Assembly: GCA_020851035.1 (NCBI GenBank)
Contig: JADZDM010000006.1
Coordinates: 62,001 to 126,000, forward strand
From: Gemmatimonadaceae bacterium
GTDB taxonomy: Bacteria; Gemmatimonadota; Gemmatimonadetes; Gemmatimonadales; Gemmatimonadaceae
Reading direction: 5' to 3'
DNA: 64,000 bases
The first letter of the stretch is position 1. Every line of letters starts with the position of its first letter. The translations under genes were made by a program, and so were the position numbers. The notes beneath the pieces are model-generated. The model made no database searches and was not told the origin of the DNA. It saw only the letters and a list, made by a program, of their open reading frames with translations. This document shows positions 35,388 to 55,304 of this stretch, piece by piece.

Positions 35388-36232
35388 CGCTGCCGCGCCT
35401 GCTGGCACCGCGGACGGCACAGCGCGTCGCCACGACGCTGCTGTGGTCGGCCACCGGGGCGACGGTCGCGCTCCTGCTCTTCATCATCGGCTTCGTGCTC
35501 CGACGCGGCGCCAGCACGCTGTCGTGGGACTTCCTGCTGTCGAGCCCGCGCCACTCCGGCGCCCTTGGCGGCATCCTGCCCACCGTGGTATCCACACTCT
35601 ATGTCTCGGCGGCGGCAGTGCTCGTCGCGGCACCCCTCGGCGTGGCGGCGGCGGTGTACCTCGCCGAATACACTCGCGATGGCAGGCTGACGCGCCTGAT
35701 CCGCGGGGGCACCGAGGCGCTGGCTGGCATCCCCAGCATCATCTTCGGCCTGTTTGGCTTCGCCTTCTTCGTGACGACCCTTGGCATGGGCTGGTCGATC
35801 CTTTCCGGCGGGCTGACGCTGGGCCTGATGATCCTGCCGACGGTGATCCGGACCAGTGAGGAGGCGCTGCGGGCCGTGCCGCGCCACTACCGCGACGTCG
35901 CCCAATCACTGGGCGCATCGAAGTGGCAGTCCATCCGCACGGTGGTGCTGCCGGCGGCCGCACCAGGCGTCATGACCGGTGTCGTGCTCGGCATCGGGCG
36001 CGCGGTGAGCGAGACGGCCGCCGTGATCTTCACCGCCGGCGTGGCACTGAAGATGCCCTGGTCGCCCTTCGATTCCGCCCGCACGATGAGCGTGCACTTC
36101 TACACGCTCACCATGGAGGGGATCAGCGACGACATGGCGTACGGCACCGCGTCGGTGCTGGTGATGACGATCCTGGTGATCAATGTCGGGGCCTACGCCA
36201 TCATGAACCGGCTCACGCGGCGCTACCGGTGA
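35384..36232 (+). CDS. pstA: Phosphate ABC transporter permease PstA
   Basis: A 282-residue inner-membrane permease, partner of PstC. The EAA loop is EEALRAVPRHYRDVAQSLGA. GIPSIIFGLFGFAFFV and GGILPTVVSTLYVSAAAVLV match the family. GTG 35384 overlaps the pstC stop (GTGA), and its own stop overlaps the pstB1 start the same way. Confidence 0.95.
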   Translation: MTLPRLLAPRTAQRVATTLLWSATGATVALLLFIIGFVLRRGASTLSWDFLLSSPRHSGALGGILPTVVSTLYVSAAAVLVAAPLGVAAAVYLAEYTRDGRLTRLIRGGTEALAGIPSIIFGLFGFAFFVTTLGMGWSILSGGLTLGLMILPTVIRTSEEALRAVPRHYRDVAQSLGASKWQSIRTVVLPAAAPGVMTGVVLGIGRAVSETAAVIFTAGVALKMPWSPFDSARTMSVHFYTLTMEGISDDMAYGTASVLVMTILVINVGAYAIMNRLTRRYR

Positions 36233-37023
36233 CACCGGCGCCGCAGGCCGTGGACGACGCGGCCGACGACACGGCCATCGACATCCGGAACCTGTCGATC
36301 CGGTACGGGGCGGTGGAGGCGCTGCGGCCCACCACGCTGCGCATCGCGCGCGGCACCATCCACGGCATCATCGGGCCGGCGGGCAGCGGCAAGTCGTCAC
36401 TGCTGCGCACACTCAACCGGCTCAGCGTGGAGCGCGATGGTGCCACCGCATCGGGTTCGATCCGCATCGATGGCACCGACGTGCTGGCGCTGCGTGGCGA
36501 TGCGCTGGCCGCGTTCCGCCGCGGTATCGGGTTCGTCTTCGCCACCCCACAGCCGCTGCCCCGCACCATCTTCGAGAACGTGGCATTCGCGCCGCGCATG
36601 GCGGGGATCCGCGACCAGGCCGCGCTCGCCGCGATGGTGGAGCGCGCCCTGCGCACCGCGCAGCTCTGGGAGGAGGTGGCGGACCGGCTCGACCTGATGG
36701 CGACACAACTCTCCGGGGGGCAGCAGCAGCGGCTCTGCATCGCCCGGGCGCTGGCCCTCACGCCAGGGGTGATCCTGCTCGACGAACCGTGCTCCGCGCT
36801 GGATCCGATCACGACGTACCGCATCGAGCAGACGCTGCTGCGGCTGACCCCGGGCGTGACGGTGGTGCTCGTGACGAACAACGTGCATCAGGCGGAGCGC
36901 ATCGCCCACGACACCAGTTTCATCCTCAGCGGTGACCTGGTGGAGACCGCCCCCACCGCACGGCTGTTCTCCGCACCGTCCGACACCCGGACGCGCGACT
37001 ACCTCGCCGGCCGGTTCGGGTGA
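36229..37023 (+). CDS. pstB: PstB-like ATPase 1 with degenerate Q-loop and H-loop
   Basis: A 264-residue cytoplasmic ABC ATPase. Walker A (GPAGSGKSS), signature ([15 protein letters not shown]) and Walker B with catalytic glutamate ([13 protein letters not shown]) are intact. The Q-loop reads [10 protein letters not shown] where PstB normally has [10 protein letters not shown], so the glutamine is alanine. The switch histidine is asparagine ([11 protein letters not shown] instead of IVTHNM). GTG 36229 overlaps the pstA stop. The next gene encodes a second PstB with the opposite defect, so the two probably form an obligate heterodimer. Confidence 0.92.
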
Positions 37024-37775
37024 GCGACAAGGTCATCGTCGAGGACCTCGACCTCTGGTATGGTGACTTCCAGGGGTTGAAGCAGGTCAGCATCGCCTTC
37101 CCGGACAGGCGCATCACGGCACTCATCGGCCCGTCCGGATGCGGCAAGTCCACGTTGTTGCGATGCCTGAACCGGATGAACGACCTCGTCGACGGCACGC
37201 GCATCACGGGCCGCGTGCTGCTCGACGGCACCGACATCCATGCGGCAGGCTTCGACGTGGAACAGCTGCGGCGGCGCGTGGGGATGGTGTTCCAGCGGCC
37301 GAACCCGTTCCCGCTGTCGGTGGAGGAGAACGTCGCCTACGGACCGCGGCTGCACGGTGAGCGGCGCCCCCACGTGCTGCGCGGCATCGTGCACGACTCC
37401 CTGCAGGCCGTCGGCCTGCTCGGCGTGGCCGGGGTGCGCCTCGACCAGCCGGCGCTGGACCTGTCCGGCGAGCAGCAGCAGCGCCTCTGCATCGCCCGCG
37501 CGCTGGCCACGTCACCCGACGTGCTGCTGATGGACGAGCCCTGCAGCGCCCTCGACCCGATCGCCACCGCGGGCATCGAGGCGTTGATGCAGCGGCTCGT
37601 CGCGCAGTACACGATCATCATCGTGACCCACAACATGGCGCAAGCGATGCGCGTGTCGCACCGGACCGGCTTCATGCTGATGGGCGAGCTGATCGAGGTC
37701 GGCGACACGCCACAGCTGTTCGGCAGCCCGCGAGACGAGCGTACCGGGAGCTACATCGCGGGACAGTACGGCTGA
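37020..37775 (+). CDS. pstB: PstB-like ATPase 2 with altered signature motif
   Basis: A 251-residue cytoplasmic ABC ATPase, start GTG 37020 overlapping the pstB1 stop. Walker A (GPSGCGKST), Q-loop ([10 protein letters not shown]), Walker B ([12 protein letters not shown]) and H-loop ([10 protein letters not shown]) are canonical. The signature reads [13 protein letters not shown] instead of LSGGQ, replacing the glycine that contacts ATP across the dimer. In a PstB1-PstB2 heterodimer this yields one canonical site (PstB2 Walker motifs with PstB1 signature) and one degenerate site. Confidence 0.93.
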
Positions 37776-38259: not shown

Positions 38260-38414
38260 GCGGGAAATCTTGCCCGGTCCTGGAGGCGGGGCGAGAGGTC
38301 ACGGGGTGCGCAACGGGCCGGGGTTGCCGCCAGGGACCGCCAGGACGCAGGACCCCGGCCCGCGTGCCCGTTCGCATGACGGACGGCCGATCGGCGGTGC
38401 AAGTTGGAGGGAGA

Positions 38415-38442
38415 GGCCGGCCGTCGAAACGAACGGCCGGCC
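38415..38442 (+). promoter_or_regulatory. 10-bp perfect hairpin in the TerY-P operon leader
   Basis: GGCCGGCCGT (38415-38424) pairs perfectly with ACGGCCGGCC (38433-38442) around an 8-base A-rich loop. It is 66 bases before the VWA gene start, in the gap between divergent genes. It could be a leader structure or a protein-binding site. No U-run follows. Confidence 0.45.
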
Positions 38443-38508
38443 CGCCGTGTTTCGAAGGCGTCGGGGTGTGTCCCGTCGCCCCAGACCGCCCCTGCTCCCG
38501 GAGTGTTC

Positions 38509-39150
38509 GTGTCGCTGCGCCGCCTGCCCGTCTACATCCTCGCCGACGTCTCCGGCTCCATGCGTGGCACCCCGGTCGAAAGCGTGAAGGCCGGGATCCG
38601 GCAGTTGCACCGCGACCTGCTCACCGACCCGCAGGCGGTCGAGAGCGCGTACCTGAGCGTGATCACCTTCGCCGACGTGGCCATCCAGGTGGTGCCGCTC
38701 ACCGAGGTCAGCAGCTTCATCCCGCCGGAGATGGAGGCGAATGGCCAGACCAACTACGGCGATGCGCTCCGCGTGCTGCTGGAGTGCTTCGAGATGGAGG
38801 TCGTCCGCACCACACCCGAGCAGAAGGGGGACTGGCGCCCGCTGGTCTTCATCCTCTCCGACGGCGCGCCGACAGACACCGGCTGGACGGAATACGCGGC
38901 GCAGCTTCGCAGCCGCCGCCCCGCCAACATCATCGCCGTCGCCTGCGGAGACCACGCCGACCTGGCCGCCCTGCGCGAGACCACGGACACGGTCATCCAG
39001 ATGCGCGACATGTCGCCCGATGCGTTCCGCGCCTTCTTCAAGTTCGTGTCCGCCAGCGTGAAGACCACCAGCGCCAAGGTCGGCTCGGTGGGTGAGGGCG
39101 GCGCGATCACGCTGCCGCCGCCACCGCCCGGCATCACGATCATTCCCTGA
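38509..39150 (+). CDS. TerY-type von Willebrand A domain protein
   Basis: A 213-residue single-domain VWA protein. The MIDAS metal site is complete: DVSGSM (13-18), the threonine in GQTNYGD, and the aspartate in LSDGAPTD. It has the compact form of TerY proteins from tellurite/stress operons. A proline-rich tail ends it. GTG 38509 follows GGAG; GTG 38503 and an upstream frame are alternatives. It is the first gene of a VWA-phosphatase-kinase set, the TerY-P triad, thought to couple metal-dependent binding to protein phosphorylation. Confidence 0.87.
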   Translation: MSLRRLPVYILADVSGSMRGTPVESVKAGIRQLHRDLLTDPQAVESAYLSVITFADVAIQVVPLTEVSSFIPPEMEANGQTNYGDALRVLLECFEMEVVRTTPEQKGDWRPLVFILSDGAPTDTGWTEYAAQLRSRRPANIIAVACGDHADLAALRETTDTVIQMRDMSPDAFRAFFKFVSASVKTTSAKVGSVGEGGAITLPPPPPGITIIP

Positions 39151-39153
39151 CGG

Positions 39154-40149
39154 GTGCGCGACGAGACCGAGGCTCCGACACCGCCGGTGCCGGAGGCGAT
39201 CATCGAACCGGCATCGTGGAGCTCGCGCGCGCCCGATGCCGAGTGGGCGCCGGCACCACTCGTCGAGGCACTCGGCGAGCGCTTCATCACGATGGCAGCC
39301 GCCGAGCCGTGCACCATCGACCGCCAGGTCGACGGGTGGGCCGTGCTCGGCGCCAGCGTGCGCGGCAAGTCGCATGGACATCGCGGCGAGCACCGCGACG
39401 ATGCCATCGCGTGCGTGTCGCGCGACGGACTGCTGGTGATGGCGGTGGCCGATGGCGCGGGATCGAGTGCACTCAGCCGGATCGGTGCGGCCGTGGTTGC
39501 CGACATCGCCACGCACCGCACCGCCGCACGGTTCGCCGCCGACGGGCACAACGCCGACACCACGTCGCGACTCGGCACCGCCATGGCGCACGCGGTGCAC
39601 GACGCCGCGATGCGGCTCCATGCACTCGCCGCGGCCGCGGCCGAGCCGCCGACGGCGTTCCGCACCACGCTGCTGCTGGTGGCGATGGTCGGTGACACGA
39701 TGCTCGTGTCGCAGGTGGGGGATGGCGCCGTGCTGGTGCAGCAGGCCGATGGCCGCGTGCTGCGTGTGGGCGGGGCACGTGACACGATGTGGGCGGGCGA
39801 GGTGACCTGCTTCGTGCCCGATCCGTGTGCCATGACCGCGGCGGCGGAATTCCGGCAGCTCCGCACCAGCGATGTGGCGCTGGTGGCGCTGCTCACCGAC
39901 GGCATCGACGATCCGTTCCACCCGCTGGAGCAGAGCGGCGACCGGCTCGTGTCGCAGTGGCGGCACGGCACCACCGAGTCCATCGGCGTGGCACGGCAAC
40001 CACCCGCCGGTGCCGTGCTCGGTGATGCCGCGGCCCTGCTCACCTGGATGGGGTTCGAGCAGCGGGGCGAGTCCGACGACCGGTCGTTGCTGCTGGCCTG
40101 GCGTGACGTGGCAGTGACGCCACCGGTGACGCCACCGGTGACGAAATGA
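39154..40149 (+). CDS. PP2C-family protein phosphatase
   Basis: A 331-residue PPM/PP2C serine-threonine phosphatase. Metal-binding motifs: RDDAIA, VADGAGSS, VGDGAVLV, LTDGIDDPF, and SDDRSLLL near the end. The catalytic domain starts about residue 60 after a variable N-terminus. GTG 39154 begins three bases after the VWA stop. It overlaps the kinase start by four bases (ATGA). It is the natural antagonist of that kinase. Confidence 0.9.
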   Translation: MRDETEAPTPPVPEAIIEPASWSSRAPDAEWAPAPLVEALGERFITMAAAEPCTIDRQVDGWAVLGASVRGKSHGHRGEHRDDAIACVSRDGLLVMAVADGAGSSALSRIGAAVVADIATHRTAARFAADGHNADTTSRLGTAMAHAVHDAAMRLHALAAAAAEPPTAFRTTLLLVAMVGDTMLVSQVGDGAVLVQQADGRVLRVGGARDTMWAGEVTCFVPDPCAMTAAAEFRQLRTSDVALVALLTDGIDDPFHPLEQSGDRLVSQWRHGTTESIGVARQPPAGAVLGDAAALLTWMGFEQRGESDDRSLLLAWRDVAVTPPVTPPVTK

Positions 40150-41630
40150 GTGCGAGTGCGACACGCGCGCTGTCGGTGCCGGTGAAGACCACCGACGGCC
40201 GCACCATCACGCTCCGCGGCACGCCGCTCGCGAGCGGGGCCGAGAAGGTGGCGTTCCTGTCGATGGATGGGCGCGATGTCGTGGCGTTCTACTTCGGCAC
40301 GCTCCGGGATCGCGCGGAGCGTGTCGAGCGCCTGAAGCGCATCGTGTCCAGCTACGATCCCACCCGCGGCGCCGGCGGCGAGTACTGGCGCAGCGCGTTC
40401 TGCTGGCCCACCGGCATCGTGGACGGCGCCGCCGCGGTGCCGGCGGACTTCGCACGCGCCCATGCGCTGGCACAGCCGTCACTCGGCGTGGTGATGCCGG
40501 TGTACCGCGGCGTGTTCTTCATGCACGATCGCTTCGGGAACCGCGTGGAGAAGGAAGTGCGCTGGTTCACGGGCCGGAAGGCGGGCGCCCTGATCCCCGA
40601 GGCCGAGAAGGGCACGCTGCTGACGCGGCTGCAGGTGTGCATGCGGCTCGCACGTGCGGTGCGGCGGCTGCACTTCGCGGGCCTCGCGCACAGCGACCTC
40701 TCGAACCGCAACGTGCTGGTGGACCTGCGCGGGGGTGAGGCGTGCGTGATCGACATCGACGCGCTGGTCGTGCCCGGGCTCGCGCCGCCGACGGTGCTCG
40801 GCACGCCGGGGTACATGGCCCCGGAGATCGTCGCGGGGCGGTCACTGCCGACGATCGAGACCGATCGGCATGCGCTGGCGGTGCTGTTCCACGAGCTGCT
40901 GCTGCAGCGGCACCCGCTGCGCGGCCGGCTGGTGCACAGCACGCGCAGCGCCGAGGAGGACGAGCAGCTCTCGATGGGGGTGAAGGCGCTGTTCGTGGAG
41001 CATCGCACCGACCGTCGCAACGCCCCCGAGTCGCCGATCACCGTCAGCGTGGATGCCCTCGGCCCGCACCTCGCGCCCCTCATGCGCCGCGCGTTCGAGG
41101 AGGGGCTGCACGCGCCGTCGCATCGCCCCGATGCGGTGGAGTGGGAGGAGGCGCTGTACCGCACGCTCGAGCGCATCCTGCCGACGCCGACGGGGCGAGG
41201 CTGGCTGATCCTGCCGGAGCGTGGTCCGACGGTGGATCCCTGGACCGGCGAGGTCGTGCACCGCGTGGTGCCGCAGTTGCGTTCCGGGCGTGGGACCGGC
41301 GGCGACTGGCGGGACGACGGGATCGTGACGGCACTCTTCCATCACCGCACGCTGCACCAGTGGCACCTGGACACCGGGGTGCGTCCGCGGGAGGCGGTGT
41401 CGCGGGAGGCGGTTGGGTACGTCTCGTTCCACGAGGGGGCGTGGTGGCTGGTGAACCTGACGGATCGGGAGTGGCGGGTGGTGCAGGCCGTTCGAGGGGA
41501 CGGGGATCCTGAACGGGTGATCGGCCGGAACACGCCGGTGCAGCTCCGCGATGGGCTCGAGCTGGCCGTGGCCGACGGCGCCGACGGCGTCGCGGGCCGC
41601 ACCTGGCGCGTGTCGATGCGGGGGGCCTAG
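40146..41630 (+). CDS. TerY-P type serine/threonine kinase with C-terminal domain
   Basis: A 494-residue protein kinase-like enzyme. The catalytic loop is HSDLSNRN (D184, N189), the DFG equivalent is VIDID (203-205), and the activation segment ends GTPGYMAPEI. The usual HRDLKPxN arginine and lysine are altered, and the beta-3 lysine is not obvious (VVAFYFG), as in TerY-associated kinases. Residues about 360-494 form an additional beta-rich domain that may bind partner or ligand. It is translationally coupled to the phosphatase. Confidence 0.85.
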   Translation: MSASATRALSVPVKTTDGRTITLRGTPLASGAEKVAFLSMDGRDVVAFYFGTLRDRAERVERLKRIVSSYDPTRGAGGEYWRSAFCWPTGIVDGAAAVPADFARAHALAQPSLGVVMPVYRGVFFMHDRFGNRVEKEVRWFTGRKAGALIPEAEKGTLLTRLQVCMRLARAVRRLHFAGLAHSDLSNRNVLVDLRGGEACVIDIDALVVPGLAPPTVLGTPGYMAPEIVAGRSLPTIETDRHALAVLFHELLLQRHPLRGRLVHSTRSAEEDEQLSMGVKALFVEHRTDRRNAPESPITVSVDALGPHLAPLMRRAFEEGLHAPSHRPDAVEWEEALYRTLERILPTPTGRGWLILPERGPTVDPWTGEVVHRVVPQLRSGRGTGGDWRDDGIVTALFHHRTLHQWHLDTGVRPREAVSREAVGYVSFHEGAWWLVNLTDREWRVVQAVRGDGDPERVIGRNTPVQLRDGLELAVADGADGVAGRTWRVSMRGA

Positions 41631-43040
41631 GTGGCCGCGCTGCTCGACGTCCGGGGCGCACTTGCGGCAGAGCTGCAGCGGCTGGTGCGCGATGCTGCCG
41701 AGTGGCCGCTGCGGGATCGACGGCGGTTCAGGAACCTGCTGCTGGATGCCACGAGCAGCGATGCGATGCCGCTGGTGGAGCTGCTGCTGCGCGCACATGA
41801 CGACGGCTTGCTGCGCTCGTTCCCGGCCCGCACCGCGCCGCGCGCCGCCTGGGATACGGCGACCGCCCGCCTGGCGAGCGACCTACAGACCCAGCGCTTC
41901 GTGGAACCCGGCGTCGCGCGGTTCGTGGCCGAGTCGTGGGCGAGGGCACTGGGCCCCGTGATGGTGACGCCGACACCGGCGCCCAGCGCGCGCGCGGCGG
42001 CACCGGCACCACGTGGGCCGGTGCGCAGCAGCGCGAACCTGCCGCCGCGCCCGTGGACCGCCGCACCCGCGGCGAGCGCGGCCCCGCAAGCGCCGTCGCC
42101 CGCCCAGGTGAAGGCGTACCGCCAGCAGAACATGGTGTTCGTGGTGGTGCTGGTCGCGATCACCGCCCTGACGATCGTGGCGATCCGCAGCGGGTCGTCC
42201 CGTGGCGACGACACGCCGGGCGCGACCGCCTCACGCACGGTGCCGTCTGCCGCCACGCCGCGTGCGCCAGCCCGCACCGCGCCGGCGCCGGCGCCTGCCC
42301 CCTCACCGCCAGTCGCCGCGACGCGCGCGTCACCGGATTCCACGCCGCCGGCTGTCGACACCGCACGCACGGCCCCTCCCCGGCCCGACTCCATGCCGCG
42401 TGTCGGGCGCGCGCCGGTGCCGGTGGCCGCCGCGCGCGAGCGGGCCTCGGACGACATCGTGCTCAATGCCGGGCGCGTGTTCGAGGGTCGCGTGCTGAGC
42501 GTGCGCGAGCTGAGCATCACGGTGAAGGACGACGAGACGGGGCTGGAGTTCGAGATCCCGAAGTCTGACATCGAACGCATCGTGACCCGCGATGGCCGCA
42601 CGATGCGATTCGGTGGCGACAACGTGCCGCTGATCGGCACCGACGACGACGTGGCGGCGGCGAGCCACGGCGGACGTTACCGCGTGCGGTACACCGAGCG
42701 GTGGGGGACCGAGCGCAGCGAGTGCAAGGATGTCGCGCGCCGGTTCGCGCCCGGCACCGACCTGCTGGTGCAGCACCTGCGCGGCGCCCCGATGCTCCGG
42801 CTGGCGTTCCTCGGCGGCCAGGGCTTCAACGCCGCGGTGCGGGCCGACGGCCTGTTCGCCACGGTGGCGGACGTGGCGCCTGTGCGCGGGCCGCAGGGCA
42901 GCGCCGTGACGGCGCGGTTGTCGGGGCGGATCAGCCGGGCCGGCGTGCTGGCGGGGATCGCACGACTGACGGCCGTGGCACCCGACGGGCAGGTGGTCTG
43001 TGACCTGGCGCTGACGATGGACGGCGCAATCCTGCCGTAG
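41631..43040 (+). CDS. Single-pass membrane protein linked to the TerY-P triad
   Basis: A 469-residue protein of unknown family. A helical N-terminal domain (about 1-105) is followed by a proline/alanine linker, one membrane segment (about 167-184, VFVVVLVAITALTIVAI), a second P/A/T-rich linker, and a C-terminal beta domain with RVFEGRVLSVRELSITVKDD and EIPKSDIERIVTR. The GTG at 41631 directly abuts the kinase TAG. It could be the kinase substrate or membrane anchor of the triad; that is inference from position. Confidence 0.7.
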   Translation: MAALLDVRGALAAELQRLVRDAAEWPLRDRRRFRNLLLDATSSDAMPLVELLLRAHDDGLLRSFPARTAPRAAWDTATARLASDLQTQRFVEPGVARFVAESWARALGPVMVTPTPAPSARAAAPAPRGPVRSSANLPPRPWTAAPAASAAPQAPSPAQVKAYRQQNMVFVVVLVAITALTIVAIRSGSSRGDDTPGATASRTVPSAATPRAPARTAPAPAPAPSPPVAATRASPDSTPPAVDTARTAPPRPDSMPRVGRAPVPVAAARERASDDIVLNAGRVFEGRVLSVRELSITVKDDETGLEFEIPKSDIERIVTRDGRTMRFGGDNVPLIGTDDDVAAASHGGRYRVRYTERWGTERSECKDVARRFAPGTDLLVQHLRGAPMLRLAFLGGQGFNAAVRADGLFATVADVAPVRGPQGSAVTARLSGRISRAGVLAGIARLTAVAPDGQVVCDLALTMDGAILP

Positions 43041-43058: not shown

Positions 43059-43577
43059 TCACCGGATGGTGAGCACGCCGTGCATGTTCAGGCTGCGGTG
43101 CGGCGCGCAGTAGAAGAGGTAGTCACCCTGCGGCAAGCCGCTGGTGCTGATGACGTACGCCGAGTCCTGCGTGGCCACCACCGGTGCCGCGAACTCGCGC
43201 GCGCCGATGGCCGCGAGGTTCGCGAGGAGCTGCGGTTTCGCGGCGGGGGGCACGAAGGCCTCGTCGAAGGCGACGTTGTGCGGCACGCCGCTGATCATGA
43301 TGAATCGCACACCGTCGCCTTCGCTGACCGTCAGGTAGGCGGGGTCGAAGCGGAACCCTTCGTCGTCCAGCACCATGTGCACGGTGTGGATGGTGCCACG
43401 CACGGGCTGGGCGGGCGGGCCGGACGGAACGCGCGACGCGGCGCGGCCTCGCGCGCTGGCATCACCGCCGCTGCAGGCGACCAAGGCAACCGCGACCAGC
43501 ACCCGCAGCCCCCGACCGATCGCGCGGGAGGAGCCAGCCGATCGTCGGGTGCCTGTCGTGCGCCGCTGTGTCCGCAT
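43059..43577 (-). CDS. Cupredoxin-domain lipoprotein
   Basis: A 172-residue exported blue-copper-like protein. The lipobox VALVAC gives a lipid-modified cysteine at residue 35. Type 1 copper ligands are visible: H in SGVPHNVAF, then C, H and M in YCAPHRSLNMHG. The fold matches plastocyanin/azurin-type cupredoxins used in electron transfer. It is convergent with the TerY-P operon and stands alone. A redox partner is not nearby. Confidence 0.88.
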   Translation of the reverse strand: MRTQRRTTGTRRSAGSSRAIGRGLRVLVAVALVACSGGDASARGRAASRVPSGPPAQPVRGTIHTVHMVLDDEGFRFDPAYLTVSEGDGVRFIMISGVPHNVAFDEAFVPPAAKPQLLANLAAIGAREFAAPVVATQDSAYVISTSGLPQGDYLFYCAPHRSLNMHGVLTIR

Positions 43578-43920: not shown

Positions 43921-45633
43921 GTGCATGGTGCTGAGCCGCGCGTGAGCTGGACGTACATCCCCGGTATCGGCACCCCCGCTGACGTGCTGCGCGAGGCGGC
44001 GACGGAGATCGAGCCGGTGCTGATGGATGCGGCACTGGCGGTGACCGACCCGGACTACCGGGGCAGCCAGTACCTCGAGGTGGCCCGCGGCAACCGCCTC
44101 AAGCCGGTTCACGTGATGGTCGACTTCCTCGGCAACGTCTTTCACGTCGCCCGCGCCGAGGCGGAGACGTTCCGGACCGAGTCGCTCACGATCACCTACC
44201 TGCCATCGTGGTTCTACCAGGTGATCAAGCAGTACCGGCGCGCCGATGCCTGGCCGCGGGACCGCGAAGTCGTGATTGCGCCGATCATCGACCGCCTCTC
44301 GGCCTACCCGCTGCGGATCACCGCCGAGGTGGACACGTCACCGGACAGCGCGCGCGGCAAGGGCACCGATCCGCGCATCATCTACCAGTACCATCCGTCG
44401 GAGCCTGCGGGCGCCGAGAAGGAAGGCAATCCAGCGGTGCTCGAGCGCATCCACTGGAGTGCGCCGCAGTGCCGGATCATCGCCGCGCCGGGCGTCACGC
44501 TCTCGGTGGAATGCACCTTCGGGAAGTTGAGCGGCATGCTCTTCGGCTCGGCGTCGCTGCCGCCGGTCTCGGAGTGGGGCGAGGCGCTGTGGGGTGAGCT
44601 CGTGTTGTACGCCGCCGCCGGTGCGGCCGACGCCGCGGCGGCGGCGACCGCGCGCACGGCGTCACCCGTCTCCACGTCACAGACGCTGCGGCTGGAACTC
44701 GAACGCCGCCAGCACGCGTCCCTGCTGCCGTCGCTCGATGCCCCGCTGCGGGAGGCCGGCGCAGCCGAGGCGGACCTGCTCACCACCGAGCTCGCCCGCG
44801 CGAATGCACAGTGGGTCGATACGACACGGCCGGATGGCGTGGACCTGTCGTTCCTGACGTCGATGGCGACGTGGAACCTGCAGCGCCAGCTCACGCTCGC
44901 GCAGTCGGCGCTGGAGGCGGTCGGCGAGAGCATTCACTACGCGAACGGCACCTTCGACGCGCTGCAGCCCGTTCCCGTGCGGATCCGGGTCGACCCCATG
45001 AGTCCACGCGACCGGTTCGTGTGTTGCGTGAGCTACCTCGATGATCGCGGCACGCCGATCCCGTATCCACCGAGCAGCAGCAACGGCCAGCCGATGTTCC
45101 GGCTCACCGTCGTGCGCACGAGGCAGGTGCAGGTGTACGCCGACCTGCGCATCGCACTCGAGGGCCGCGTGCAGCTCGCCGCGATACTCGACTACCGGGA
45201 GCATGTCGTCGACCACGCCGATGACGTCCCGCTGGCGCTCGATCCACTGACCACCGGTGTCTTCCCGCGCGTGTCGATCAACGACCGTCCGTGGACTGCC
45301 GCCGAGGCATTCGACGTCGTGATGACGCCGGTGGGCGTCCTGCCGTTCCCGGCGACGCAGGTGGCGGCCGACTACTACGACTACGCGACGCTGGCGACGT
45401 ACCTCGTCTTCGGCACGGACCCCTTCGGCCGCGAACTGTCGCGCTGGGACTTCGGGATCACCCTCGGTGGGATCCTGCTGCCCGAGGCGGCCGAGCGCAT
45501 GTTCCGCGGCGCCGCCCGGCTGGCGCGCCTGCGCAAGCTCGGCGCCCATCCCGGCGGTCGCATGATGGACGCGCTCGAGCAGAGCGAGCTGGCCGACGCG
45601 CTCCTTGCCATCGGCCCGGTCGCCGACCGATGA
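43921..45633 (+). CDS. Unrecognised protein, first of a three-gene operon
   Basis: A 570-residue soluble protein without signal or membrane segment. I do not recognise a family. The N-terminal 220 residues are mixed alpha/beta (SWTYIPGIGTPADVLREAAT; PVHVMVDFLGNVFHVARAEA). A helical segment follows (about 245-340), and the rest is beta-rich (VCCVSYLDDRGTPIPYPPSS). The C-terminus is basic and helical. GTG 43921 or GTG 43942 may start it. Its stop overlaps the next gene (ATGA). Base and codon use match the genome, so no sign of recent transfer. Confidence 0.75.
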   Translation: MHGAEPRVSWTYIPGIGTPADVLREAATEIEPVLMDAALAVTDPDYRGSQYLEVARGNRLKPVHVMVDFLGNVFHVARAEAETFRTESLTITYLPSWFYQVIKQYRRADAWPRDREVVIAPIIDRLSAYPLRITAEVDTSPDSARGKGTDPRIIYQYHPSEPAGAEKEGNPAVLERIHWSAPQCRIIAAPGVTLSVECTFGKLSGMLFGSASLPPVSEWGEALWGELVLYAAAGAADAAAAATARTASPVSTSQTLRLELERRQHASLLPSLDAPLREAGAAEADLLTTELARANAQWVDTTRPDGVDLSFLTSMATWNLQRQLTLAQSALEAVGESIHYANGTFDALQPVPVRIRVDPMSPRDRFVCCVSYLDDRGTPIPYPPSSSNGQPMFRLTVVRTRQVQVYADLRIALEGRVQLAAILDYREHVVDHADDVPLALDPLTTGVFPRVSINDRPWTAAEAFDVVMTPVGVLPFPATQVAADYYDYATLATYLVFGTDPFGRELSRWDFGITLGGILLPEAAERMFRGAARLARLRKLGAHPGGRMMDALEQSELADALLAIGPVADR

Positions 45634-47231
45634 CCACCGAATCGCGGATCATCACCGGGTCACTCGCCGGTCCATCGGAGGTGCTGCTGCGGCGCTTCCA
45701 GGGGCGTTTCGCCAAGGCGGGTGTCAGCCATCTCGCGGAGCCGGCGCTGGTGTATGCGCTGGACCAGGTGATGGATCGTGGTGCCCGTTGCCTCTACACG
45801 CGCCGGATCCTCGAGCCCTTCGAGGCCGCACGTCGCGCGCAGCCGGGCCTGACCCTCGCCGACTTCTTCGCGCGGGGGACACCCGAGGTGCGAGCGCTCG
45901 GCGAGCAGCTCTTCGGCACGGACGGCTTCACGCTCGTCACGCTCCAGGGTGGACGCGGGTACTTCGACGCGTGGAAGCGGGTGATGGACTCGTTCCGGCA
46001 CGCCGCGCCACCGACGACGTTCGGCCCTGCGTGGGGGCACTGGTCGACACGCAGCGTCACGCTCGGTGCCAACACCACCACGCCGCATGTCGTGCCGATC
46101 GACTTCCCCGCCCGCCGGGTGGATGGCGACACGGTCACGTGGGTCTATCCGCGTTGGGACACCATCCGGATGCGCGCGTACGTGCTTCTCGGGCACATGG
46201 AGCTCGCGCGCGCACTGGGAAAGGACGTGCCCCTCGACCTGCGTGGCGCCGCCCTGTTCGACTGGGCCGGGCTGGGTGGCACCAGGGTGACTCCGCTCGC
46301 CTTCGCGGCACACCCGGACCTCAGGATGAGCCGCACGCAGATGGCCCAGATGCTGAGCACCGGGCGCGCGCCGGCGTTCCAGTCACAGATCCTCCCGGTC
46401 GGTGCGACACGTCCGAAGGGACTCCGGCACTCGGCCGTCCGCAACGCGGAGGACGCGTCGTGGGAGCTGGCGCGCCGGTTCAGCGACGCCCGGTTCGTGG
46501 ACCCGGCCACGTTCGAGGCCGCGGTGGCGGATCACGCCGCGGCGCTGCTCGACACCAGCCTTCCGTCGCAGGTGAACCCCGCCCACCTCGTGACGACGGT
46601 GTCGCCGGCCGACCTGCTGCGGATCGCGCGGAGCGATCCCGGCGCCCCGCAGATCGTCACCATGGTCTGGGAGCTCGAGCACCAGCGCGCCCAGCGCTCG
46701 GTGCGCTCGCTGGAGTCGATGCTCGCCGCACTCGACACCACGGTCGACACGAGCCTGATCCGCAACCTCTGCGGCCTCGGTGACCCGCACAACCTGGCGC
46801 TGGTGACCCCGTACGGGCACGCGGCGCGCGACATGTACGCGGCCATGATGGGGAGCGGCCAGCGCTGGAGCGTGAATGGCGCGCGCCTGGCGCCGGACCT
46901 CGCGCTCGCGGGCAACACGTCTCCCGTGGCCCCCGCCATGCCGGCCACCACGGTGAGCGACCAGGTGCCCGCGGGCTTCAACCAGGAATTCGACTCACAC
47001 GACGACTACCCGCGCGCGATGAACGTCTTCTTCGGGTTCACGCCGCGGGAGCTCGACCGCGTGGCACGGATGCTCTCCGGCGCACCGGTCGCCGATCTCC
47101 TCGCCCGGTACGATGCCACGCGGGCCACCCAGGTTCGCGAGACCTACAACCACCTCGCCGGCTGCATGAACGCCGCCATCAATTCGTACCAGCTGGACAA
47201 GACGCTGCTCCTGGACTTCATCCCACTCTGA
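45630..47231 (+). CDS. Unrecognised protein, second of a three-gene operon
   Basis: A 533-residue soluble protein, mostly helical, no signal peptide and no recognised motif. Recognisable stretches: GGRGYFDAWKRVMDSFRHAA, VTWVYPRWDTIRMRAYVLLG, and CMNAAINSYQLDKTLLLDFI at the end. The latter half ends with a helix-rich segment after a flexible region with GSGQRWSVNGARLAP. ATG 45630 overlaps the previous stop, and the third gene begins 12 bases later. The operon looks like one functional unit, possibly assembling a large complex, but nothing proves it. Confidence 0.75.
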   Translation: MTTESRIITGSLAGPSEVLLRRFQGRFAKAGVSHLAEPALVYALDQVMDRGARCLYTRRILEPFEAARRAQPGLTLADFFARGTPEVRALGEQLFGTDGFTLVTLQGGRGYFDAWKRVMDSFRHAAPPTTFGPAWGHWSTRSVTLGANTTTPHVVPIDFPARRVDGDTVTWVYPRWDTIRMRAYVLLGHMELARALGKDVPLDLRGAALFDWAGLGGTRVTPLAFAAHPDLRMSRTQMAQMLSTGRAPAFQSQILPVGATRPKGLRHSAVRNAEDASWELARRFSDARFVDPATFEAAVADHAAALLDTSLPSQVNPAHLVTTVSPADLLRIARSDPGAPQIVTMVWELEHQRAQRSVRSLESMLAALDTTVDTSLIRNLCGLGDPHNLALVTPYGHAARDMYAAMMGSGQRWSVNGARLAPDLALAGNTSPVAPAMPATTVSDQVPAGFNQEFDSHDDYPRAMNVFFGFTPRELDRVARMLSGAPVADLLARYDATRATQVRETYNHLAGCMNAAINSYQLDKTLLLDFIPL

Positions 47232-47243
47232 GAGGCCGACACG

Positions 47244-50036
47244 ATGGCGACGACTCCCCAATCGCTCTTCAAGTTCGTTCAGCTCCGGCGCCTGACGGAC
47301 ACGGCCCCCGAACCCTGCACCACCGGCGCCGGGGTCGTGCGGGACGCGATGGACTTCAGCGCCGCCGGCACGCCGCCAGTCCGCAAGGCGGCGGCGGCAG
47401 GCGACCTGGAACAGGGCACCGCGCTCTACACCGAGCGCGCGAAGGCACTGACCGGTGACGCCCGCGCGGCGGCGCAGTTCGCGCTCCGGCAGCTCAAGCT
47501 CGCCAGCACCAACGAGCGGCTCACCATCGGGCAGGTCCGCGCCAACCTCAAGGCGTGGGAGAAGCAGACGGGCATCACCGGTGCCCGGCAGAAGAAGGCG
47601 TTCGGCGAGGCGATTGCGTGGGCGGCCGACATGGTGATCCTGCAGCGCTGGCTCCGGCCGTCGCTGCCCGCGTCGAGTGGCGATCCGGTGCGCCTGCTGC
47701 GCGGTCTCGGCATCGTCGCGCTCTCGCAGGCCGAGGCCGACCCCGGCTGCCGTGTGCGGTCGCTGGTGGCGAAGGCGGAAGTGCAGCTCCCGGACGTGGT
47801 GGTCCCGCCACCGCCGAAGCACCCCGACGTCGTGAAGGCGAACCAGCTCGACGCGATGCAGGCGGACCTCGCACGCCTGCAGGTACGCGCACGCGCATCG
47901 CGGCCCGGCGCCGACCCCACCATCGAGGAACTCGGCAAGGCCGGCGCGAGCGACATGGATGCCCAGGTGAAGGCGATCCAGGGTGCCGCAAAGACGATGG
48001 GCCTGCCCGTGACCACGACGGCGAGCTCGATGCAGGAGGTGCTCGGCCTGGAGGCAGCGACGGCGCGCACGAAGAGCCCGCCCTCCAGTCCCGGGTCGAT
48101 CGCCAGCCCGGGCGGTCCGCACATCGACATCGACGACGTCATCACGATTCCCGCGCCGAGGCCCTCGGTCCCGGTGCTGACCGCCGAGGCGCGTGTGCTC
48201 GGGCGCGGTGACCTGATGCTCGTGCGCACCGCACTGCTGCGCTACGAGCCGAACGAGATCTCGCACATCGAGAATGTGCTCGCGACGGAGGTACGCGAGC
48301 GGACGCACGTCCTCGACGTCACCACCAGCGAGACCGTCACGGAAACCAGCAAGAGCGCCAGCGAGACCACCCGCGACCTCGAGACCACGGAACAGCACGG
48401 GCTGGAGCGCGCCACCGCCACGGCCGCGAGCACCAGCAGCAGCATGTCGATGGGACTCAGCGTGAGCGGTGGGCTGGGTCCGATCCAGGCCGGCATCGAC
48501 ATCGATGCCTCGCGGTCCACCACCACGTCGTCCAGCTCCAGCGCCGCGGTGTCGTACGCAAAGACGATCACCGAGCGCGCCTCGGAGACGCTCCGGAGCG
48601 AGGCCAGCTACCGCCGCACCGTGACCAGCACGACGCAGGTGACGGAGACCAACCTCCACAAGTTCGACAACACCGCGGGCGCCGCGAACATCGCCGGCAT
48701 CTATCGCTGGGTGGACCGCGTGGACCAGGCGCAGATGTACAACTACGGCGAGCGTTTGCTGCTGGAGTTCGTCGTGCCCGAGCCGGCTGCACAGTTCGTG
48801 CACCTCAGGCAGGCGACGGAGGCGGCGGATCCCATCGTGCCGCCGCCCGGCTGGAACCTCGAGATCACGGAGCTCACCGAGGCCAACTACGTCCGAAAGG
48901 CCGCACGGTGGAACGTGCTCGGCCTCGAGACGCCTCCGCCGCTGGAGGTGTTCACGACGGCGTCGTTCGCCGATCCTGCGGCCCGCCCGTTCGACTACAA
49001 GACCGATTCGACGGACCAGAGCCAGCCGGAGTGGGGGTACAGCTCGTACGTCAACGAGGTCGCCATTCCGGAGGGCTATGCGGCCGCGACCGCGTGGGCC
49101 ACGGTGACGTGGGGGCTCTCGCAGGGCGAGTATGACACGAAGGACAGCGGCACCACGCAGAACACGCAGGCGGTGGAGATCGTGATCGGGTCCGACAAGG
49201 CCACGATCAGCGATTCCGGCGACAGCGGTGCGGAGTTCGACCTGAATGGCGAAGTGGGCGGACCGCTCCCGATTGCGGTCAGCGCCGACCAGCGCGGGGG
49301 GTTCGCGATGGCCGTGCGGGTGAAGTGCCAGCGCACGCGCGAGGCGTTCGAGGCGTGGCGGCTCAAGACCTACGAGACCATCCGCGCCGGCTACCTGTCG
49401 CTCCAGCAGCAGTACGAGACGGCCCTGTCGGTGGCGGAGATCCGGCAGGCGTACGCCGCGACCACGCCCTCGGACATGAATCGCACGATCGAGATGCGCG
49501 AGCTGAAGCGCGCCTGCCAGACGGTGATGACGGGACAGGACTTCGACCTGTACGGTGCGATGACCTTTCCTGCGGGCGAGATCCCACGCGTGGACGCCAG
49601 CGAGGCGACGGCCGAGGCGGACTCGATCCAGTTCTTCGAGGACCTCTTCGAGTGGGAGAACCTCGTGTACCTCTTTTACCCCTACCAGTGGGCGGGGCGG
49701 TCGCGCTGGGCGGAGCTGCTGTCGCGCTCGAGCACGGATCCGTTGCACGAGGCCTTCCTGCAGGCCGGCGCGGCGCGCGTGGTGGTGCCGGTGCGCTCGG
49801 GGTACGAGCACGCCGTGGGACGGTACCTCGCGACCTCGGTGGTGCCGAGCCTAGAGCCCGCGACGTGGCGGGGGCAGAAGAATCCCTATCCGCCGATCGA
49901 GGAGCTGATCGCGGACGGGCTGGACCGACCGGGGGACGAGGTGGCGGTGGGCGATCCGTGGGAGGTGGTGACGCCGACGTCGCTGGTGTACCTGCAGGCG
50001 GGAGCGGATCTGAACCCGGCTGACGGCACGGCGTAG
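47244..50036 (+). CDS. Large unrecognised protein with a Ser/Thr-rich amphipathic core, third of the operon
   Basis: A 930-residue protein with no signal peptide. The N-terminal 280 residues are helical. Residues about 305-500 begin with RYEPNEISHIENVLATEVRE, followed by Ser/Thr/Glu-rich alternating segments (TSETVTETSKSASETTRDLE, SMGLSVSGGLGPIQAGIDID), and end with IAGIYRWVDRVDQAQMYNYG and LLLEFVVPEPA. This recalls a long helical stalk around a small hydrophobic hairpin, as in pore-forming or shaft proteins. Residues 600-720 are beta-rich, and 740-870 helical (FEDLFEWENLVYLFYPYQWA). AGAGG precedes the ATG. Function not known. Confidence 0.78.
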   Translation: MATTPQSLFKFVQLRRLTDTAPEPCTTGAGVVRDAMDFSAAGTPPVRKAAAAGDLEQGTALYTERAKALTGDARAAAQFALRQLKLASTNERLTIGQVRANLKAWEKQTGITGARQKKAFGEAIAWAADMVILQRWLRPSLPASSGDPVRLLRGLGIVALSQAEADPGCRVRSLVAKAEVQLPDVVVPPPPKHPDVVKANQLDAMQADLARLQVRARASRPGADPTIEELGKAGASDMDAQVKAIQGAAKTMGLPVTTTASSMQEVLGLEAATARTKSPPSSPGSIASPGGPHIDIDDVITIPAPRPSVPVLTAEARVLGRGDLMLVRTALLRYEPNEISHIENVLATEVRERTHVLDVTTSETVTETSKSASETTRDLETTEQHGLERATATAASTSSSMSMGLSVSGGLGPIQAGIDIDASRSTTTSSSSSAAVSYAKTITERASETLRSEASYRRTVTSTTQVTETNLHKFDNTAGAANIAGIYRWVDRVDQAQMYNYGERLLLEFVVPEPAAQFVHLRQATEAADPIVPPPGWNLEITELTEANYVRKAARWNVLGLETPPPLEVFTTASFADPAARPFDYKTDSTDQSQPEWGYSSYVNEVAIPEGYAAATAWATVTWGLSQGEYDTKDSGTTQNTQAVEIVIGSDKATISDSGDSGAEFDLNGEVGGPLPIAVSADQRGGFAMAVRVKCQRTREAFEAWRLKTYETIRAGYLSLQQQYETALSVAEIRQAYAATTPSDMNRTIEMRELKRACQTVMTGQDFDLYGAMTFPAGEIPRVDASEATAEADSIQFFEDLFEWENLVYLFYPYQWAGRSRWAELLSRSSTDPLHEAFLQAGAARVVVPVRSGYEHAVGRYLATSVVPSLEPATWRGQKNPYPPIEELIADGLDRPGDEVAVGDPWEVVTPTSLVYLQAGADLNPADGTA

Positions 50037-54360: not shown

Positions 54361-54416
54361 GAGGTCTGGGGCTACGATCACACTGCACCAGTCTGCAGCG
54401 GGGGCAATTCGGGACA

Positions 54417-54636
54417 ATCCGGTGACAGGGACAATCCGGTGACAGTGCACCAATATCCCCGGCAATTCGGTGACAGACAACAATCCGACAATCCGGTGAC
54501 AGTGCACCAATATCCCCGGCAATTCGGTGACAGACAACAATCCGGTGACAGTGCACGAATATCTCCGCCACGCCGCGGCACACGACAATCCGGTGACAGT
54601 GCACCAATATCCCCGAACAATCCGGTGACAGTGCAC
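54417..54636. repeat. Family B repeat cluster 1 (five full GGTGACAGTGCAC copies)
   Basis: Full copies at 54438-54450, 54495-54507, 54544-54556, 54592-54604 and 54624-54636 all point the same way. Three partial copies (near 54420, 54469 and 54526) keep GGTGACAG only. Each core is preceded by AATCC or AATTC and followed by AATAT. Larger units of 48-57 bases are partly duplicated (for example the stretch CTCCGCCACGCCGCGGCAC occurs twice). The cluster sits between the FKBP start and the DUF4440 stop, both on the minus strand. Confidence 0.9.
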
Positions 54637-54683
54637 GAATATCTCCGCCACGCCGCGGCACGGCCTGCCCGGCCGGGGGTCGC

Positions 54684-55184: not shown

Positions 55185-55304
55185 AATACGGTGAGCAATA
55201 CGGTGACAGTGCACGCATTGCTTCAATACGGTGACAGTGCCCACGAAAGCGCGCAATGAATGCACTGTCACCGATTTAGTGTCACCGATGTCGATGTCAC
55301 CGAT
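55185..55304. repeat. Family B repeat cluster 2, including an inverted pair
   Basis: GGTGACAGTGCAC at 55202-55214 and GGTGACAGTGCCC at 55230-55242 point one way, and TGCACTGTCACC at 55261-55272 the other, so the last two can pair as a hairpin with an 18-base loop. Partial copies (AGTGTCACCGA, GATGTCACCGA) follow. The cluster lies in the divergent gap between the DUF4440 and lipoprotein genes. Confidence 0.85.

What the first reader, a model, noticed from the sequence alone, without database searches (positions are those of the whole stretch)
43921..50036. Three large unrecognised genes in one tight operon
Proteins of 570, 533 and 930 residues are translationally coupled and match no family I know. 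The third has a Ser/Thr/Glu-rich alternating core flanked by conserved-looking blocks (HIENVLATEVRE, GIYRWVDRVDQAQMYNYG), reminiscent of stalk or pore-forming proteins. No signal peptides are seen. This could be a new multi-protein machine.
Basis: partly seen in the sequence, partly recalled or inferred. Interest (0 to 1): 0.65.

Follow-up and report, generated by a model that had tools for sequence, protein, structure and literature searches.

The report
Undescribed carrier protein with swappable partners
The third of the three genes belongs to a large protein family, absent from the reference family libraries searched here, that recurs across bacteria and archaea and is nearly always paired with one of many different enzymes or toxin-like proteins, so it looks like the shared half of an unrecognised two-part weapon or delivery system.

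Summary
In detail: 43921-45633 (P1, 570 aa), 45630-47231 (P2, 533 aa) and 47244-50036 (P3, 930 aa) are real genes in one tight operon. None has a convincing match in Pfam, PHROGs, NCBIfam or the PDB. P1-P2 overlap by ATGA; P2-P3 are 12 nt apart.

They are not a co-conserved trio. P1 and P2 were found nowhere else. P3's C-terminal 600 residues define a widespread unnamed family: 286 relatives in one genome scan, in many bacterial phyla and in archaea, scattered as if moved sideways. An N-terminal LFxFxxxR motif is conserved too.

In 87 of 92 loci examined a partner gene follows P3 closely (median gap 20 nt). The partner varies: patatin, phospholipase D, Het-C-like, LodA oxidase, arginine deiminase, M23 peptidase, pre-toxin TG proteins and several unnamed families. 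The partner class changes at least 30 times on the P3 tree, while P3's N-terminus follows its own core. In the window P1, which has a weak TG-like region, and P2 take the partner place, but upstream.

Best reading: a generic, non-secreted carrier or pore protein plus interchangeable effector. The module is well supported; the carrier or pore mechanism is inferred (about 45%). Contractile-system linkage was tested and not seen.

The parts
43921..45633 (+). P1, 570 aa, GTG start (alternative GTG at 43942). N-terminal part not assigned; occupies the partner place of the module
   Evidence: GC3 0.893
45316..45510 (+). P1 residues about 466-530: pre-toxin-TG-like region (motif GTDPFGRELSRWDFGITLGGILLP)
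   Evidence: hhalign to partner clusters 1 and 3, the two TG-bearing clusters; scores 37.0 and 40.1 against at most 26.1 for 60 shuffles and 30.5 for 40 natural decoys. Below Pfam's threshold
45630..47231 (+). P2, 533 aa, ATG overlapping the P1 stop (ATGA). Orphan; possible effector enzyme or toxin
   Evidence: single-sequence AF2 model uninformative, pLDDT 34.5
47244..50036 (+). P3, 930 aa, ATG: member of the unnamed widespread carrier family
47265..47288 (+). P3 residues 8-15 (LFKFVQLR): conserved N-terminal motif, R15 invariant in the alignment of 47 full-length proteins
   Evidence: motif in 71 of 92 P3 proteins against 5 of 71 partners
48171..50018 (+). P3 residues about 310-925: conserved core
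48318..48635 (+). P3 residues 359-464: Ser/Thr/Glu-rich insert of near-constant length between two 30-residue strands (317-346 and 482-512 in the AF2 model)
48438..48527 (+). P3 residues 399-428: amphipathic beta-hairpin tip (family consensus KAGLxVSxxYGPxVExxAxA)
   Evidence: family-averaged beta hydrophobic moment 1.7-2.0 against alpha 0.35-0.46 for the windows starting at residues 399-411
48939..49337 (+). P3 residues 566-698: jelly-roll-like beta sandwich
   Evidence: AF2 model; VIA-align Z up to 8.0, generic level

Best explanation
P3 is the constant half of a two-part module. It is a large soluble protein without a Sec signal that handles, and probably delivers or helps to deliver, an interchangeable effector encoded next door. 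Most likely it oligomerises on a target membrane: the long-strand region (317-512) with its 107-residue insert and amphipathic hairpin tip would form a pore or translocation stem, the jelly-roll domain (566-698) could bind the target, and the partner supplies the harmful activity. In this genome the partner place is held by P1, which ends just after a pre-toxin-TG-like region, and P2, an orphan that could be the active part. Shown: the family, the pairing, the partner swapping, the lack of signal peptides, and the periodicity of the insert. Inferred: oligomer, pore, delivery, target, and the roles of P1 and P2.
For: P3 core relatives: 14 plasmid records; 286 loci in genome contigs, 80 kept, in many bacterial phyla plus methanogens and haloarchaea; 3 viral contigs. 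Pairing: 87 of 92 loci have a downstream same-strand ORF of at least 140 aa, nearly all within 300 nt, median gap 20 nt; 63 of 92 have the next gene within 60 nt, against 30% of 756 control genes in the same loci. The partner is not a chance neighbour: 61 of 78 first-downstream genes fall in families shared between loci, 47 of them in families spanning two or more phyla; for the first upstream gene it is 2 of 43 and 0, for the second downstream gene 4 of 39 and 2. Partner types: patatin 6, PT-TG 7, PLD 3, LodA, PAD, M23, PhoD-like, Het-C-like, glycoside-hydrolase-like, lectin-like. G021, a genome of the window's own family, pairs a divergent P3 with a PLD protein. Swapping: at least 30 changes of partner class on the P3 tree; 72 pairs of P3 proteins with core identity of 60% or more have different partners yet alike N-termini. 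Pore-like pattern: two 30-residue strands, an insert of near-constant length and an amphipathic hairpin tip. No Sec-like N-terminus in 71 partners. P1 has a TG-like region.
Against: No sequence or fold match to any known pore-former or binary-toxin component, though the fold searches mostly tested residues 566-699 only. The insert is modelled at low confidence (pLDDT mostly under 60) and partly helical, which would also suit a coiled stalk. No secretion route is identified. P1's TG-like match is below Pfam's threshold. P1 and P2 lie upstream, not downstream, and have no relatives beside any other P3. The partners share no common docking region, apart from the TG region shared by two classes, so how one P3 would recognise them all is unexplained.
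Confidence: 0.45

Rival explanations
1. P3 is a carrier, scaffold or storage protein (for instance a cage or fibre that holds the effector and is released by lysis or loaded into another delivery machine) rather than a pore. The N-terminal LFxFxxxR motif would be the docking or loading signal.
For: N-terminal motif with an invariant Arg over great distance; no signal peptides; jelly-roll domain and long strands also suit fibres and shells; generic P3 with swapped partners.
Against: No sheath gene near any P3 relative and a sheath gene in only 17 of 51 genomes, so at least contractile systems are not the regular vehicle. The amphipathic hairpin tip has no obvious place in a shell.
Confidence: 0.25
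2. The module is an intracellular defence or self-killing system: P3 senses an invader and releases or activates the partner, as in CBASS-like sensor-effector pairs.
For: Patatin and PLD partners resemble effectors of anti-phage systems; sporadic, partly plasmid-borne distribution; cytoplasmic proteins.
Against: M23 peptidase, LodA, arginine deiminase and lectin-like partners are odd for killing one's own cell. Annotated plasmid neighbourhoods read here are mostly not defence islands. The PADLOC hits come from patatin and PLD folds, not from P3.
Confidence: 0.15
3. P3 is a dedicated immunity protein, chaperone or maturation factor for its partner.
For: Tight two-gene coupling.
Against: Closely related P3 proteins sit beside unrelated partners: 72 pairs of different partner class at core identity of 60% or more, all with alike N-termini; a specific binder should co-vary with its partner.
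Confidence: 0.07
4. P1, P2 and P3 form a three-protein machine specific to this lineage, and the likeness to paired modules elsewhere is incidental.
For: The three genes are tightly spaced with the same codon use; P1 and P2 are seen nowhere else.
Against: P3 relatives occur without P1 and P2 in all other loci. Partners upstream of P3 also occur elsewhere (L011, L069). P1 carries a TG-like region as partner classes 1 and 3 do.
Confidence: 0.08

Closest known systems
Polymorphic toxin systems with pre-toxin TG (PT-TG, PF14449) proteins
   Same: Interchangeable toxin-like enzymes linked to a constant part; 7 of the 65 partners scanned match PT-TG; Het-C is a known polymorphic-toxin domain (PMC3482391).
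   Different: Here the constant part is a separate protein (P3) of an unnamed family, not an N-terminal trafficking domain fused to the toxin; no recurrent immunity gene follows (4 of 39 second-downstream genes shared between loci); no secretion signature.
Two-component (A plus B) toxins of the protective-antigen / C2II / Vip1 type
   Same: Separate effector and carrier genes side by side; the carrier has long strands flanking an amphipathic Ser/Thr-rich hairpin (the likeness to the insertion loop of these pores is from memory: a lead, not a test).
   Different: No Pfam, PDB-sequence or Foldseek match; no signal peptide; partners far more varied, and the family reaches archaea.
Extracellular contractile injection systems (PVC/Afp type) and their cargo
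   Same: Effectors of similar kinds (Het-C reported with PVC-type systems, PMC3482391); non-Sec proteins.
   Different: No sheath gene within the flanks of any P3 relative; P3 matches no injection-system component in the libraries searched.
CBASS-like and other modular defence systems with patatin or PLD effectors
   Same: A constant protein with swappable effectors; patatin and PLD partners hit those profiles.
   Different: No known sensor domain in P3 by Pfam; partners include a peptidoglycan-type peptidase, an amino-acid oxidase and an arginine deiminase.

Membership tests
Polymorphic toxin system | pre-toxin or toxin domain of known type in the variable protein | tested here: inconclusive
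   Met at family level (7 PT-TG partners). For P1 only by hhalign, above shuffles and decoys but below Pfam's threshold.
Polymorphic toxin system | constant trafficking domain fused to the toxin | tested here: not met
   The constant part is a separate gene in the loci studied.
Polymorphic toxin system | adjacent immunity gene | tested here: inconclusive
   No recurrent second downstream family: 4 of 39; 39 modules have the partner alone.
Binary toxin B component (protective antigen / C2II type) | sequence match to the known family | tested here: not met
   No Pfam match to a binary-toxin or other pore-forming family at E<=0.1 in P3 and 46 relatives; no PDB chain by profile at E<=1.
Binary toxin B component (protective antigen / C2II type) | same fold as a known B component | tested here: inconclusive
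   Not among the listed matches, but the searches were filled by residues 566-699.
Binary toxin B component (protective antigen / C2II type) | amphipathic hairpin between long strands | tested here: met
   Pattern only: insert of near-constant length with strong beta periodicity at its tip; membrane insertion itself not testable here.
Binary toxin B component (protective antigen / C2II type) | ring-shaped oligomer that passes the effector through a membrane | not testable with these tools
   Needs biochemistry or cryo-EM.
Contractile injection system or its cargo | linkage to sheath genes | tested here: not met
   0 sheath hits among 2,819 ORFs in 1.79 Mb of flanks.
Contractile injection system or its cargo | co-occurrence in the genome | tested here: inconclusive
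   17 of 51 P3-bearing genomes have a sheath gene, the window's genome among them; no matched base rate.
Toxin complex (Tc) proteins | Tc domains by sequence | tested here: not met
   No Pfam match in P1, P2 or P3 at E<=1.
Anti-phage defence system | match of the constant component to a known defence family | not tested
   P3 itself was not scanned with PADLOC; only the partner set, P1 and P2 were.

The most novel reading that the evidence does not exclude
P3 founds a new class of protein-delivery or pore-forming component: one conserved, non-secreted protein shared by bacteria and archaea that accepts many unrelated effectors encoded as swappable neighbouring genes, outside all known secretion systems and toxin families.
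Probability: 0.35. Interest if true: 0.85.

Novelty: new variant of a known kind. Interest (0 to 1): 0.64.

Why it matters
A protein family with several hundred relatives in a single scan, spread across bacteria and archaea and tied to a rotating set of lipases, oxidases, peptidases and toxin-like proteins, is missing from Pfam, PHROGs, NCBIfam and the solved structures searched. If it delivers or deploys these partners, it opens a new class of interbacterial or host-directed weapon and gives a marker for finding many unknown effectors (many partner classes have no family either). Even if the mechanism proves different, the pairing pattern gives function-finding leverage on dozens of orphan proteins.

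Tried and rejected
Sequence families for P1-P3: nothing beyond chance in Pfam, PHROGs, NCBIfam, PDB. P1 and P2 relatives: none in plasmids, 150 genomes of the phylum, or viral contigs. P2 fold: single-sequence AF2 useless (pLDDT 34.5). P2 against neighbour clusters by hhalign: nothing. P3 fold: Foldseek and VIA-align return only generic matches, mainly jelly rolls on residues 566-698, best Z 8.0; no pore-former or toxin carrier appears in the lists, which is not proof of absence, since the rest of the model was barely tested. N-terminal variable part of P3 as a partner-specific dock: rejected, it follows the core's relatedness and not the partner. Contractile injection system: rejected as a regular neighbour. 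Fusion of P1 and P2 broken by a frameshift: considered; both junction ends look natural (ATGA overlap) and no relative exists to decide. Recent-transfer signal by composition: none; GC and GC3 match the surroundings, so any acquisition is old. Literature: no paper found in the open-access library that describes the family; it cannot be searched by sequence, so a description under another name is possible.

Full report
THE OBSERVATION. Their third-position GC (0.89-0.92) matches the neighbours, so they are coding. P1 and P2 overlap as ATGA; P2 and P3 are separated by 12 nt with a good ribosome-binding site. None has a convincing match in Pfam, PHROGs, NCBIfam or PDB sequences. No signal peptide or transmembrane segment by hydropathy. 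The window is G000:C6:62001-126000 of a 4.97-Mb genome. Downstream of P3 lies a TetR-family regulator on the other strand; upstream are a plastocyanin-like gene and a vWA/PP2C/kinase set.

P3 DEFINES A WIDESPREAD UNNAMED FAMILY. tblastn against plasmids found 14 records in Actinomycetota, alpha- and betaproteobacteria, Bacteroidota, Cyanobacteriota and a haloarchaeon. Only residues about 305-925 align; the N-terminal part varies, apart from a short motif. A scan of 84,980 genomes with the core alignment gave 286 relatives, of which 80 loci were kept; a viral-contig scan gave three. In the window's own phylum it is rare: 3 of 395 genomes, and not found in two genomes of the same genus. Those two keep the neighbouring genes up to window position about 43,420-43,444, some 500 nt before P1, where alignment stops, which suits gain or loss of the block. 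In an alignment of 47 full-length proteins the N-terminal LFxFxxxR motif is shared and R15 of P3 is invariant. No Pfam family is shared by the relatives, and a profile of 78 sequences finds no PDB chain.

THE CONSERVED UNIT IS A PAIR. In 87 of 92 loci a same-strand ORF follows P3, median gap 20 nt; 63 of 92 are within 60 nt, against 30% of 756 control genes in the same stretches. That next gene is one of many unrelated kinds, but the kinds recur: 61 of 78 fall in families shared between loci, 47 of them in families that span phyla. The first upstream gene (2 of 43, none across phyla) and second downstream gene (4 of 39) do not recur. So the unit is P3 plus partner. Identified partners: patatin lipases, PLD proteins, Het-C-like proteins, LodA/GoxA-type oxidase, protein-arginine deiminase, M23 peptidase, PhoD-like, lectin-like and glycoside-hydrolase-like proteins, and pre-toxin TG proteins; several large classes match nothing. 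Het-C and pre-toxin domains are recognised parts of polymorphic toxins (PMC3482391), and LodA-type oxidases belong to enzymes whose hydrogen peroxide is antimicrobial (PMC4417212). G021, a genome of the window's own taxonomic family, carries a divergent P3 followed by a PLD protein.

PARTNERS ARE SWAPPED. On a tree of 78 cores the partner class changes at least 30 times and the host phylum at least 31 times (quick tree, long branches present, so counts are approximate). 72 pairs of P3 proteins with cores at least 60% identical have different partner classes and still have alike N-termini. The N-terminal region therefore follows the core, not the partner. This argues against P3 as a partner-specific inhibitor or chaperone and for a generic role.

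P1 AND P2. Neither was found outside this genome. Profile comparison of P1 with all neighbour clusters gave two outstanding matches, to clusters 1 and 3, over P1 residues 390-530. These are the two clusters that share a TG region with each other (95.8% probability); cluster 1 contains proteins that match Pfam PT-TG. Scores of 37.0 and 40.1 exceed all 60 locally shuffled P1 sequences (at most 26.1) and 40 natural decoys (at most 30.5). The motif reads GTDPFGRELSRWDFGITLGGILLP in P1. On the tree one of the nearest P3 proteins to the window's is L033, whose partner is of cluster 3, but this join involves long branches and is unsure. P1 ends about 40 residues after the TG region, where other TG partners continue into a C-terminal domain, and P2 starts there. 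That P2 supplies the active part is an inference. The window's order (partners upstream) is unusual but has parallels in L011 and L069.

HOW IT MAY WORK. The AF2 model of P3 (mean pLDDT 67; core mostly above 80) shows two strands of about 30 residues (317-346, 482-512), a jelly-roll domain (566-698), a long helical hairpin (699-763) and a C-terminal strand. Between the two long strands lies an insert of almost constant length in the whole family (99-118 residues). Its tip has the strongest beta periodicity of the region (moment about 2.0 against 0.4 for alpha) around a Gly-Pro turn, with helical or polar Ser/Thr/Glu-rich flanks. That combination is what one expects of a pore-former's insertion hairpin, and is also compatible with a stalk. 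The fold searches matched mainly the jelly roll, at generic level. I therefore commit to a carrier or pore protein with swappable effectors as most likely (0.45), with a non-pore scaffold or carrier next (0.25) and a defence system third (0.15). No sheath gene occurs in 1.79 Mb around the relatives, and 17 of 51 P3-bearing genomes have one anywhere, so contractile machines are not the usual vehicle. No partner has a Sec-like N-terminus, so release by lysis or an unknown route must be assumed.

WHAT IS NEW. The family, the pairing and the swapping are not in the libraries or papers I could search. The logic (constant part plus variable effector) is known from polymorphic and binary toxins, so I file it as a new variant of a known kind; if the delivery role is proven it would deserve more.

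Noticed in passing
window 38404-43040 (+): vWA protein, PP2C phosphatase, protein kinase and an unassigned 469-aa protein in one tight row, a signalling set; part of it is conserved in same-genus genomes up to position about 43,440.
   Followed up: partly
window 54411-54647, further copies at 55194, 55222, 58962, 59030, 61043, 61264: Short repeat CACTGTCACCGGATTGTC in 12 copies (up to 3 mismatches) against 0.07 expected, partly as a 57-nt perfect tandem.
   Followed up: partly
G000:C5:519500-527000 (L123): Two phage-tail-sheath genes close together elsewhere in the window's genome, possibly a contractile injection system or prophage.
   Followed up: no
window 35923-37775 (+): Two consecutive PstB-like ATPase genes after phosphate-transporter permease genes, by reading the translations only.
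   Followed up: no
L033:2214-8870: 2,218-aa ORF without any Pfam match just upstream of a P3 relative in an uncultured gammaproteobacterium.
   Followed up: no
L092:12258-14900: Beside the Azospirillum P3 relative: a candidate partner with a Gly/Ala-rich hydrophobic stretch, followed by what reads like an IS110-type transposase.
   Followed up: no
partner clusters 0, 5-8, 10, 17, 18, 21: Partner families that match nothing or only marginally in Pfam, several spanning phyla: candidate new enzyme or toxin families.
   Followed up: no
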